DNA of 64,000 bases, from contig JAHWDD010000003.1 of assembly GCA_023897205.1 (NCBI GenBank), positions 5,397,665 through 5,461,664 on the forward strand. The letters are read 5' to 3'. How positions within the stretch are numbered: the first letter of the stretch is position 1; each line of letters begins with the position of its first letter. Below, piece after piece: positions 15,991 through 19,504 of this stretch. Origin of the DNA: Exophiala sp. HKRS030 (lineage: Eukaryota > Ascomycota > Eurotiomycetes > Chaetothyriales > Herpotrichiellaceae). Below the pieces are notes generated by a model. That model saw only the letters and a program-made list of their open reading frames with translations. It ran no database searches and was not told the DNA's origin. A program made the translations under genes and the position numbers.

Positions 15991-18900
15991 CTATTTGGGA
16001 ACGGCAAAAATGATAGAAAACCGCATCACAGGCGTATAAGCCTTGACATCTGCAGCCTTCAAGCCAGCACGGTCAAGCAGACTGAGCCATTGTTCAAGAG
16101 TTCGAACTTTCGACCCGAATATCGCCAGCATCTGTATGTCAAGACCAATAGGATACAAATTTGCGCCTGTCTCAGCCAAGACAACCTCATCGAGCAAGAT
16201 CTGTGAATCAGGGCCCAAGGCAGGTACGATGTTCTTCAATAGCGCCACCGCAGGCTCATCATCTAAAGTCTGCAAAACAGCATTCAGATAGTAATATTTG
16301 GCTCCTGTTATGACATGGTCAGTCTTTGATAGTGTTGGGTCAATGGCATACAGAAGTAGAGTGACGACATACCTTTGATGGGTTGTGGAGTAAAGACATC
16401 GTGGCCGACTTTCTCGACGCCATCAATTGGAGGAGTTGCATTAACGCTTTCTGCTCGATCTTCAAGGATAATGCGCCCCGAAGCTCCGGATATTTTGCTA
16501 ACAAGCGCCTGGACTGGAGGCCAATATTTCCGTTGATGTCGACAAATATCGTTTGATCCTCGGCCGCTGAAGCGATCGCATCGCTAAAGGGGATGGCACT
16601 TAGCCAGTCACCTTCCTTATGAACGCTTATGACGCCTTGTAACAATTTGAGAATTTTCGGGTCACTCTTTGCCCAGGCGAAGAAGTTCAGGTCGGTGTTG
16701 ACGGATTTGTGGAATGCACTGATCCCCCACTGGGACTTTTGTAGCCGATATCCTGGAGATATTCTGGAAGAATTTGAAATGCCGGGTTACTAACAACTCG
16801 GAAAAACTCCAAGGTTGAGGCAATCCCTGCATCGGCAAGTGTGCTAGTATGCTGGGTGGCTGCAAATTGCTCTTTATTTACTTCTTTCACAAGTCGATGG
16901 CCTGCAAAGTAACGAAGAAGTCGATGAACCAATTGGGGATCTGCACCTGTGGGTTGCGCGAGCTCGTCAACACTCACAGGCAACTTGCTCTTGGTAAGCG
17001 CTTCAAAGATGCCCAGGCTATTTCCAATTTTGATCAAGGAGAGCTGACGACCCTATGTTAAGATATCAATGTTAGTGTTCCATTGGAATGAGATCATGAA
17101 ATTCGAATCTGGATAATAAGGAGAACATACCGAATCTGCCAAGCGTCTCATTGTGTCGTGGGGAGTTTCTAGCTTTTCCGCCGCTTCAAGGAAGGTATTT
17201 ATCAAGAAATGCCTGCTTGATTCATCAAGTGAGTGACCTTGGCTGATAACTGGAGGCAACAGGTCTCCTGGAGAACTTTGGGCGGTTTTGGTAACTCCAT
17301 TAGAGGCATGCGTCCCATTGACAGTCTCGTTGACACCATTACCGACATCGTTACCGACACCGTTACCGACACCATTGGTAGTAACGTTTTCAATATGACT
17401 GCCACCGTTCACAGCTTTCTCCGTAGTTTGACCTCCTTTCTTCTCTGTCAAGAATTTATCAACGTCGGGGGTGTTCCGTTCCAAGAATCCCAGCGAGAAC
17501 AAATCGGCTTTGCGGACTTTCTCAGCCTCTCCCTTTTTGAGTCCCAGATTTCCTCGCTCGAGGACGGCAACAAATCCACCGATTGAATCCTTTGTGAAAT
17601 TTTCAACGTTGATGATATCTTCATGGCGAAGCATTTTTCTTCCGCGCAGAACATTCAGAGCATCTGATTCCTCCGGGGTGAGGCTTTTCTGGATCTCGTC
17701 AATAGCCTTGTTCGTATCTTCGTCGCTGGCGTTGACATCCAAATTGGCGGTTTTGAGTTTCTGAAGAAGAGACTCCTTCAGTTCAGGCTCAATATTCAAG
17801 AATGAACGAAAGGCAAACTCAATCGTCTTCGAAACTTCTTCCTGAGTCAGACTGCCTCTGGTATCGGCATCTACAGTTCCTTGTATGACTGGATTGAAAC
17901 TTTAGTATGCGTCTTGTTGATATGAACTGGAAGAAGGGAGGGATCTCATCTTACTTGGTCTGAAAAGATCAAATGCTCGATCAAAGCTCTTTTCATCAAA
18001 ATCATTGATAACGGGCTCGTCTCCGAGTCGGATTTGTTTCAAGGCACTGCTTACCACGACCAGGAACCGGGTATAGCTAGTAGCCGTTTTCTCCGAATGC
18101 CATTGAGCCGCAGACTCTTCACTGGTGTGGCCCTTCAGTGCTGCAGCAATGGTGGTCGCAGCTGAAAGACCACCATGCAATGCTAGATGAACACCAGTAG
18201 AAAAGAACGGGTCGATAAAAGCTGCGGCATCACCCAAGATACGAGCGTATGGAAATGCGTAGTGAGAGGCACTATATGACCAATCCGAAGCAGATTTGAT
18301 ATCTGAGACAAGCTCGCCATCGCCAATTAGATCTTTGATCCCAGGAACCAAGTCGAGTGAGTGTAAATAGAATTCCTTGCTAGACGGTGAGCCTAGCTCT
18401 CTTTTCTTGGAAGTGGCCAGGTCCTGGTTCTGTACGATTCCGATAGACCAAGTGCCATCGTGAAGAGGAATAAACCACACCCAGCCTGAAGAATCTGAGA
18501 TTGATACTTGTTAGTATCGTGTTCAAGAAATTTGTTTTTGTGTAAGTATTTACCTTTAAGAGCCTCGAAGTAAGGTGAGCCCTCTCTCTTGGTACCTTTT
18601 CCATATGCACCGGCCCCTTTCCAATAAGCCCAGTTGGCAATATTTTTCAAACCTTGATTGTAGTGCCGGTTCTTCAAATATTTCGTACTTAGCAACCCTT
18701 GTCGTCCAGAAGCATCAACAAAGTATTTGAATGAGATCCTGCCAGTCGTACCATCCTTGCGCTTCCAAGTCGCAGCGACTGGCTTGCCAGGATTATTGAG
18801 AGCGGAGCTGGCACTTCCACTGTCGTTCTCAAACTCGATTGCGTCCACCTTGGTCTGGTCGAAGATCTTGGCACCAGATTCGCCGGCATGCTTGAAAAGC

Positions 18901-19504
18901 AACTCATCTCCCTCTGATCGTATAACATTCCAAGCGTGTCCCTGCGGTCCACCAGCGGCGATAAAGTCGGTATCTAGATGTTTTCGTTGGTCAGTCTAAA
19001 CCACACGTATACTGGAATGCCAAAGAAAGGTAGGTCAGCTTACAAGCCTCCGGTCGTGACCAGTTCAATTTGAAAGCCGCTCCATTCTATTGTATTTGTT
19101 AACAAGATCGAATCACAACAAATCGTGACATGCAGTGGTATATCCACTGCAACATGTCCTCGCATGTGGATAAGGCGTACCTTGATTCTGAAACCATGAG
19201 AATTCCACTTCTCGTAGGCATCAATGAACTTGAGGTAGTATCGCATAGATGGGAGCATGCTTTCCCCGATATGGTATCTTTTGTGTATTAGCACCAGAGA
19301 AGGAACGAAGCTATCTTCGTTGCTTAAAGGTGATAGTTGAACTCATCAATCGCACAAGTGACAACACCAAACATACCTGGGGAATTTGTCTGCTTCCAGA
19401 ACCACGACATCAATACCTTCTAAGGCCAGTGCTGCAGCAGCGTAGGAGCCTCCTGGGCCGCCTCCGGCGACCAGAACGGTGGTGCTTAATGGTACGTCTG
19501 CCAT
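15991..19504 (-). CDS. Flavin-dependent halogenase fused to an O-methyltransferase-like domain
   Basis: One gene appears to encode two proteins that are normally separate. Exons (minus): 19504-19377, 19277-19181, 19086-19044, 18973-18554, 18494-17955, 17888-17131, 17052-16373, 16304-15991; about 993 residues. Residues 1 to about 548 are a fungal phenolic halogenase: FAD motif GGGPGG, EADKFPR, YHIGESMLPS, the GWVWFIP motif and DPFFSTGVHLA. An Asn/Gly/Val linker (about 569-608) follows. From about 630 there is a methyltransferase fold: DELAQPTGADP, HRLLRYFAGH, AFHKSVNTDL, and a C-terminal EQWLSLLDRAGL. Exon 6 is one open frame from halogenase through linker into the methyltransferase. The methyltransferase half lacks the catalytic HDW motif (it reads QTL) and two SAM-motif glycines are Asn. 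It also carries two one-base frame lesions, at 16737-16740 and 16476-16479. The halogenase half is intact. Likely role: chlorination of the PKS product. Confidence 0.85.
17332..17379. repeat. 12-base minisatellite in the fusion linker
   Basis: Four imperfect tandem copies of a 12-base unit (17332-17343, 17344-17355, 17356-17367, 17368-17379). On the minus strand they encode the Val-Gly-Asn-Gly/Asp-rich linker between halogenase and methyltransferase-like domain. Because the unit is a multiple of three, copy-number change would lengthen or shorten the linker without breaking the frame. Confidence 0.85.

What the first reader, a model, noticed from the sequence alone, without database searches (positions are those of the whole stretch)
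15991..19504. Single gene joining a flavin-dependent halogenase to a methyltransferase-like protein
Exon 17888-17131 is one uninterrupted frame that begins in the halogenase C-terminal region, passes through an Asn/Gly-rich linker and enters the N-terminal part of an O-methyltransferase fold; the next intron (17053-17130) splices in phase to more methyltransferase. In fungal clusters known to me these are separate genes. A physical link suggests channeling between chlorination and a second step, or a regulatory partner domain.
Basis: partly seen in the sequence, partly recalled or inferred. Interest (0 to 1): 0.9.

Follow-up and report, generated by a model that had tools for sequence, protein, structure and literature searches.

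The report
Halogenase fused to retired methyltransferase
A fungal gene joins a chlorinating enzyme to a methyltransferase, a fusion already known from moulds such as Aspergillus oryzae, but here the methyltransferase half has substitutions at its key residues and two breaks in its reading frame, so it likely no longer methylates anything.

Summary
The join is real. On the minus strand six GT-AG introns leave one open frame of 783 codons through a flavin-dependent halogenase (FDH), an Asn/Gly-rich linker and the start of an O-methyltransferase (MT). The fusion is not new: of 120 listed homologues 45 have 840 aa or more, 43 of these with both domains, and AoiQ (Aspergillus oryzae) and Dia5 (Trichoderma reesei) are characterised. 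Window and nearest relative (Talaromyces proteolyticus, 977 aa, unbroken) both lack the His/Glu pair used for methyl transfer and three more hallmark residues. Yet their MT halves are 71.5% identical, against means of 61% and 66% for dyad-bearing pairs of similar FDH divergence, so the likely non-methylating domain was probably kept by selection. The window's breaks are very recent or are assembly errors; a zero-gap frame change also lies in the nearby polyketide synthase. Verdict: a new variant of a known fusion, a likely non-methylating MT riding on an apparently sound halogenase.

The parts
16687..19504 (-). Spliced open frame of 783 codons; exons 19504-19377, 19277-19181, 19086-19044, 18973-18554, 18494-17955, 17888-17131, 17052-16687; six GT-AG introns between them
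17760..19504 (-). Flavin-dependent halogenase domain (about residues 1-540; the low end of this range is approximate), motifs GGGPGG, FPRYHIGES, FKLN, WVWFIP, FFSTGVH present
   Evidence: motif roles recalled
17224..17500 (-). Asn/Gly-rich linker (approximate), predicted disordered in the T. proteolyticus homologue
   Evidence: sequence
16723..17223 (-). MT N-terminal part in the halogenase frame (dimerisation domain), interrupted by intron 17130-17053
16723..16726 (-). Place of the first frame change in the MT (approximate)
16478..16726 (-). MT middle part in a second frame, with VDINGNIG at motif I
16478..16479 (-). Place of the second frame change in the MT (approximate)
15991..16478 (-). 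MT end in a third frame, with GT-AG intron 16372-16305; LQTL at the dyad His position, KVRT at the dyad Glu position
889..6677 (+). Neighbouring non-reducing polyketide synthase: KS, AT, PT, ACP; SAT-like start read by eye (start codon approximate); zero-gap frame change inside KS at about 2946-2957
11435..12685 (-). Zn2Cys6 regulator with AflR domain
14339..15406 (+). AflR-domain protein, no Zn2Cys6 match in this ORF

Best explanation
This gene is a fungal relative of the AoiQ/Dia5 fusions in which an open-framed flavin-dependent halogenase is joined by an Asn/Gly-rich linker to an O-methyltransferase domain whose methyl-transfer residues are substituted and whose frame is broken twice, so it likely makes a chlorinating enzyme with a methyltransferase half that is predicted not to methylate. 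Shown: the join, the introns, the two frame changes, the substitutions shared with T. proteolyticus, and identity of the MT pieces above the mean of dyad-bearing fusions of similar halogenase divergence. Inferred: (1) an ancestor had a working FDH-MT fusion; (2) in the lineage of the window and T. proteolyticus the MT lost the His/Glu dyad and a conserved Arg but was kept by selection as a folded partner of the halogenase, for dimerisation, stability or substrate hand-over; (3) in the window's genome the MT, and the KS of the neighbouring polyketide synthase, were hit by frame changes very recently, so the pathway is probably being lost; (4) the halogenase would act on an isocoumarin-like polyketide, as AoiQ and Dia5 do.
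For: Open 783-codon frame with FDH, linker and MT start. Unbroken 977-aa homologue P0001 at 71% over 99%; window and P0001 are sisters in the FDH tree of 121 rows (SH-aLRT 100). In 45 fusion rows the dyad His is H in 42, the dyad Glu E in 43, Arg881 R in 43, Trp887 W in 42 and Gly820 G in 44; P0001 departs at all five and the window shows the same departures. [quoted passage not shown] Window against P0001: FDH 418 of 539 (77.6%), MT 259 of 362 (71.5%); 25 dyad-bearing pairs at FDH 74-78% average 61.0% in the MT, 74 pairs at 78-82% average 66.1%. The MT of P0001 is predicted as an intact fold like LepI. AoiQ and Dia5 show what the fusion does elsewhere.
Against: No assay: loss of methylation and the partner role are inferred. 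Identity does not fall behind the breaks (67, 71, 76 and 76% along the MT), so they may be assembly errors. One pair is compared with 25 and 74 non-independent pairs whose ranges (maxima 76.5 and 77.5%) include 71.5%. P0001's MT has a long branch (0.86, median 0.12) and a slightly low MT/FDH ratio to the other fusions (0.684), which speaks for relaxed or changed constraint on the stem. No DNA of T. proteolyticus was at hand for dN/dS. My check that frame breaks are not general favours long frames.
Confidence: 0.55

Rival explanations
1. The frame changes are assembly errors: the gene is whole and encodes a protein of about the length of P0001, an FDH with a folded, dyad-less MT, and the pathway is alive.
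For: MT identity to P0001 does not fall behind the breaks, codon-position GC pattern is kept in each piece, and the last intron keeps GT-AG.
Against: Three zero-gap frame changes fall in this one cluster, while other genes looked at are open over long frames (a selection that favours long frames).
Confidence: 0.33
2. A LepI-like repurposing: the MT fold lost methyl transfer and gained another reaction, such as a dehydration or cyclisation, that follows chlorination.
For: Closest solved structure of the MT is LepI by sequence and by fold; LepI also replaced the dyad His; the MT stayed conserved after the loss.
Against: The LepI Arg295 is a Gln here, and LepI keeps the Glu of the dyad column that is lost here. 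LepI is also the closest solved chain of a dyad-bearing fusion, P0074, so nearness to LepI is not special.
Confidence: 0.12
3. A working bifunctional halogenase/O-methyltransferase that channels substrate.
For: AoiQ and Dia5 have this architecture and both activities (passages of PMC13301986 and PMC9144378).
Against: Dyad His and Glu, a conserved Arg and a motif I Gly are substituted, and the frame is broken twice.
Confidence: 0.04

Closest known systems
AoiQ (Aspergillus oryzae) and Dia5 (Trichoderma reesei), FDH-MT fusions of the dia clusters
   Same: Same order: FDH, linker, MT; NR-PKS and metallo-beta-lactamase genes nearby
   Different: Their MT is active (passages); here five hallmark positions are substituted and the frame is broken twice. 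dia3 (SDR) and dia4 (oxidoreductase) homologues were not sought here
P0001, Talaromyces proteolyticus 977-aa protein
   Same: 71% over 99% of the 783 aa, same five substitutions
   Different: Its frame is unbroken in the database record
P0012, Parahypoxylon ruwenzoriense 969-aa protein
   Same: FDH-MT fusion with His and Trp of the motif lost
   Different: Keeps the dyad Glu and the Arg; its MT is far more diverged (MT/FDH identity ratio 0.56)
RadH (8gu0), stand-alone fungal FDH
   Same: Closest solved structure of the FDH half of P0001
   Different: No MT domain in the solved chain
LepI, SAM-binding pericyclase with an MT fold
   Same: Closest solved structure of the MT half; methyl-transfer His replaced
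   Different: Has Arg295 where the window has Gln, keeps the Glu, and is not fused to a halogenase
CTB3/ElcB dual O-methyltransferase/FAD monooxygenases (recalled, no call)
   Same: An OMT and a flavoenzyme in one fungal chain
   Different: Reverse order and a monooxygenase instead of a halogenase

Membership tests
AoiQ/Dia5-type bifunctional FDH-MT | N-terminal FDH with flavin and halogenase motifs | tested here: met
   Trp_halogenase E 9.7e-24, motifs present
AoiQ/Dia5-type bifunctional FDH-MT | Complete C-terminal MT in the same open frame | tested here: not met
   Frame ends in the MT N-terminal part; the rest is in two other frames; an assembly error is not excluded
AoiQ/Dia5-type bifunctional FDH-MT | His/Glu methyl-transfer dyad | tested here: not met
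   Gln and Val at the two columns, Gln and Ile in P0001
AoiQ/Dia5-type bifunctional FDH-MT | Cluster with NR-PKS and beta-lactamase-like gene | tested here: met
   KS-AT-PT-ACP in the window, Lactamase_B gene just left of it at L024:9114-9869
AoiQ/Dia5-type bifunctional FDH-MT | SDR and FAD-dependent oxidoreductase partners (dia3, dia4) | not tested
   No search made for them
AoiQ/Dia5-type bifunctional FDH-MT | Chlorination and O-methylation activity | not testable with these tools
   Needs enzyme assays
LepI-type SAM-binding pericyclase | O-methyltransferase fold | tested here: met
   Model of P0001 superposes on LepI, 2.2 A over 366 columns, TMt 0.87; the window's own MT was not folded
LepI-type SAM-binding pericyclase | Arg in place of the catalytic His (LepI Arg295) | tested here: not met
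   Gln in the window and in P0001

The most novel reading that the evidence does not exclude
In this lineage the methyltransferase half of an AoiQ-type fusion became a non-methylating domain that the halogenase came to depend on, a pseudoenzyme module held more strictly than its methylating relatives, and the window catches the moment at which that module and its pathway are breaking down.
Probability: 0.3. Interest if true: 0.65.

Novelty: new variant of a known kind. Interest (0 to 1): 0.42.

Why it matters
Fused tailoring enzymes are usually read as two catalysts on one chain. A fusion whose second domain lost its catalytic pair yet stayed conserved would show that the second domain can serve the halogenase itself, which bears on why AoiQ-type halogenases are fused at all and on how to use them as biocatalysts. 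It also warns that 'bifunctional protein' names given by homology can be wrong for one of the two functions.

Tried and rejected
Novel fusion: rejected, because the architecture is in print (AoiQ, Dia5) and in many annotated proteins.

An intron bridging the MT frame changes: rejected, because the pieces abut or overlap on P0001 at both junctions.

A second copy in the same genome: not found. Of 25 matches of P0001, 9 lie in this locus and the other 16 match only the MT part at 24-40% identity.

Genome-wide frame errors: two HSP70 genes are open over 597 of 599 positions, three antiporter paralogues and the copies of a 778-aa neighbour gene are open, and nine KS-bearing frames of 855-2139 aa sum to 14,652 codons. 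This selection favours long frames. Of the 20 KS rows, three are this locus and eight others sit in frames of 128-421 aa that I did not read; from their coordinates, by hand, the three other KS domains split over frames leave about 50 nt or more at the split, as introns would, while the window's KS leaves none. Base-run counts decided nothing.

Truncated A. nidulans-type proteins (P0035, P0037, P0058, P0064) as evidence of MT loss: set aside, because they end just where the conserved MT intron lies and the A. nidulans homologue gave dichlorodiaporthin in a yeast assay (Introduction of PMC13301986), so the gene models are probably cut short.

More dyad-less relatives: a search with the MT part of P0001 gave 19 proteins from 7996 scored candidates (capped), none new with its motif (of the 242 fetched proteins 39 fit the motif pattern used: 34 HNW, 3 HDW, QTL in P0001, NKC in P0012).

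Thermomyces hal (PMC12541888, passages): no fusion in the passages seen. PMC12871659 (passage): AoiQ only in the reference list.

Literature searches for a halogenase fused to a non-methylating MT: (listings; 15 of 108 papers listed, 10 of 11, none of those 10 with the word halogenase). No such report was found. The primary AoiQ papers (Chankhamjon 2016, Liu 2021) were not read (the id tried for Liu 2021 is not held; the other was not tried) and are cited through the papers above.

Rows dropped before a count: P0012, P0024, P0041, P0081, P0104, P0113 (dyad-less, truncated or aberrant MT) and P0001 itself, leaving 38 of 45 rows and 701 of 703 pairs.

Full report
What was claimed.

What is there. 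Removing six GT...AG introns (19376-19278, 19180-19087, 19043-18974, 18553-18495, 17954-17889, 17130-17053) leaves one open frame of 783 codons from the ATG at 19504 to the stop at 16687. It holds a Trp_halogenase match (E 9.7e-24), FAD_binding_3 and, at residues 667-734, the O-methyltransferase dimerisation domain (E 8.2e-08). The FDH has GGGPGG, FPRYHIGES, FKLN, WVWFIP and FFSTGVH (their roles are recalled).

What is not there. The MT does not continue in that frame. Its middle part lies in a second frame (about 16726-16478) and its end in a third (about 16478-15994, with a further GT...AG intron 16372-16305). Each piece was aligned apart to P0001, the 977-aa homologue of Talaromyces proteolyticus; the pieces abut or overlap on P0001, with no bases left for an intron at either change.

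Is the fusion new? No. The search found 2781 matching proteins among the 7997 candidates scored (capped) and listed 120; 45 of the 120 have 840 aa or more, 43 of these 45 list both PF04820 and PF00891, and four of the 120 are named by a source as an FDH/O-methyltransferase bifunctional protein (P0019, P0022, P0025, P0030). A 2015 survey marks FDH/OMT genes in group V3 NR-PKS clusters (PMC4591646, passages). AoiQ of Aspergillus oryzae, 1014 aa, is the characterised type (PMC9144378 and PMC8407142, passages). Deletion of its homologue dia5 in Trichoderma reesei abolished the halogenated compound and the 6-O-methylated ones (PMC13301986: abstract, passages and the whole Introduction). P. nalgiovense carries the two halves as separate genes.

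What is different here. The MT hallmark residues are substituted. In the 45 fusion rows the dyad His (P0001 column 885) is H in 42, Q in P0001, N in P0012 and a gap in the truncated P0041. The dyad Glu (column 940) is E in 43, I in P0001 and a gap in P0041. Arg881 is R in 43, N in P0001, one gap. Trp887 is W in 42, L in P0001, C in P0012, one gap. The motif I Gly820 is G in 44 and N in P0001. The window has Gln, Val, Asn, Leu and Asn at these five. Glu913 is kept in both. [quoted passage not shown] The window's Gln sits on that LepI Arg in the alignment. The two columns are 55 residues apart, 56 in OxaC; the mapping to OxaC numbers assumes an N-terminal tag in the solved chain. That methyl transfer is lost is therefore a prediction from residues, not an assay.

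Kept or decaying? Window against P0001: FDH 418 of 539 identical (77.6%), MT 259 of 362 (71.5%); along the MT 94 of 140, 59 of 83, 22 of 29 and 84 of 110, so identity does not fall behind the breaks. Among 701 pairs of 38 dyad-bearing rows (seven of 45 set aside, named in Tried and rejected), the 25 pairs with FDH identity 74-78% have a mean MT identity of 61.0% (sd 5.7, maximum 76.5) and the 74 pairs at 78-82% have 66.1% (sd 3.9, maximum 77.5). So the dyad-less MT is at least as conserved as those of relatives that keep the dyad, on one pair and within the range of the others. Against this, P0001's MT is somewhat more diverged from the other fusions than their FDH would lead one to expect (ratio 0.684, against 0.703 for pairs at FDH 65-70% and 0.731 for pairs at 55-66%) and has a long branch: the stem was faster, the time since the split was not. 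P0012 (Parahypoxylon ruwenzoriense), also without the His, has a ratio of 0.56, which looks like decay. In the FDH tree it falls (SH-aLRT 96) with 21 shorter FDHs of Hypoxylon and related genera; 17 of the 21 tails could be printed, and they resemble the start of P0012's linker, which may equally be an ordinary FDH tail. My reading is an ancestral fusion whose MT half was lost or retired more than once; the direction is inferred, since tree counts cannot tell gain from loss, and P0001 and P0012 are unresolved in the MT tree.

Structure. AlphaFold2 on P0001 with 37 relatives gives a confident MT (blocks from residue 621 on at 76-97 pLDDT), a disordered linker (below 50 at 548-612) and a weak FDH (mean of the whole 72.5, pTM 0.47). 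The MT superposes on LepI at 2.2 A over 366 columns. LepI is also the nearest solved MT for the dyad-bearing P0074, so this nearness is not special. The window's own MT was not folded.

Are the breaks real? Against: identity and the codon-position GC pattern are kept behind them. For: three zero-gap frame changes fall in this cluster, the third in the KS of the neighbouring NR-PKS near 2946-2957, while other genes looked at are open over long frames.

Setting. The polyketide synthase (KS, AT, PT, ACP; a SAT-like start by eye; the frame ends just after the ACP) lies at about 889-6677 on the plus strand, a metallo-beta-lactamase gene just left of the window (L024:9114-9869), a flavin monooxygenase-like gene beyond it, and AflR-domain genes at 11435-12685 and 14339-15406. 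The beta-lactamase is nearest to Exophiala bonariae (70%), and T. proteolyticus has one at 61% on a contig of the same length as that of P0001; distance and neighbours there were not seen. This fits a dia-like, isocoumarin-type cluster; the product is inferred. A dia product called MDD inhibits plant growth (PMC13273347, passages; I expand MDD as 8-methyl-dichlorodiaporthin from recall), so I kept the broken pieces apart and mended nothing.

Verdict. It works like a halogenase with a partner domain. I do not file it as a bifunctional AoiQ-type enzyme, because the methylation feature was tested on sequence and not met.

Noticed in passing
window about 2946-2957: Zero-gap frame change inside the KS domain of the NR-PKS, just behind the DTACSS active-site motif.
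   Followed up: partly
genome G000 (59.8 Mb); L026, L027: The genome looks doubled: by eye the HSP70 matches fall into about seven pairs, one pair is 81% identical over 1957 bases, and window gene 47844-50177 has a 75% copy elsewhere.
   Followed up: partly
window 17053-17130: The intron at the MT start is 78 nt, keeps the frame and ends in TAG, so its retention would give a halogenase-only protein; A. nidulans-type gene models (P0035, P0037, P0058, P0064) stop at the matching place.
   Followed up: partly
window 11435-12685 (-) and 14339-15406 (+): Two AflR-domain genes lie between the PKS and the fusion; the second has no Zn2Cys6 match in its ORF.
   Followed up: no
P0044, P0059, P0071, P0074, P0084, P0087, P0104, P0113: Eight fusions with HDW and a GGG motif I form one branch in the FDH tree apart from the HNW fusions, next to stand-alone FDHs, so the join may have an old or a second origin.
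   Followed up: no
L024:9114-9869: The beta-lactamase next to the PKS is nearest to Exophiala bonariae (70%); other Chaetothyriales proteins are among the best hits, which hints at the organism's order.
   Followed up: no
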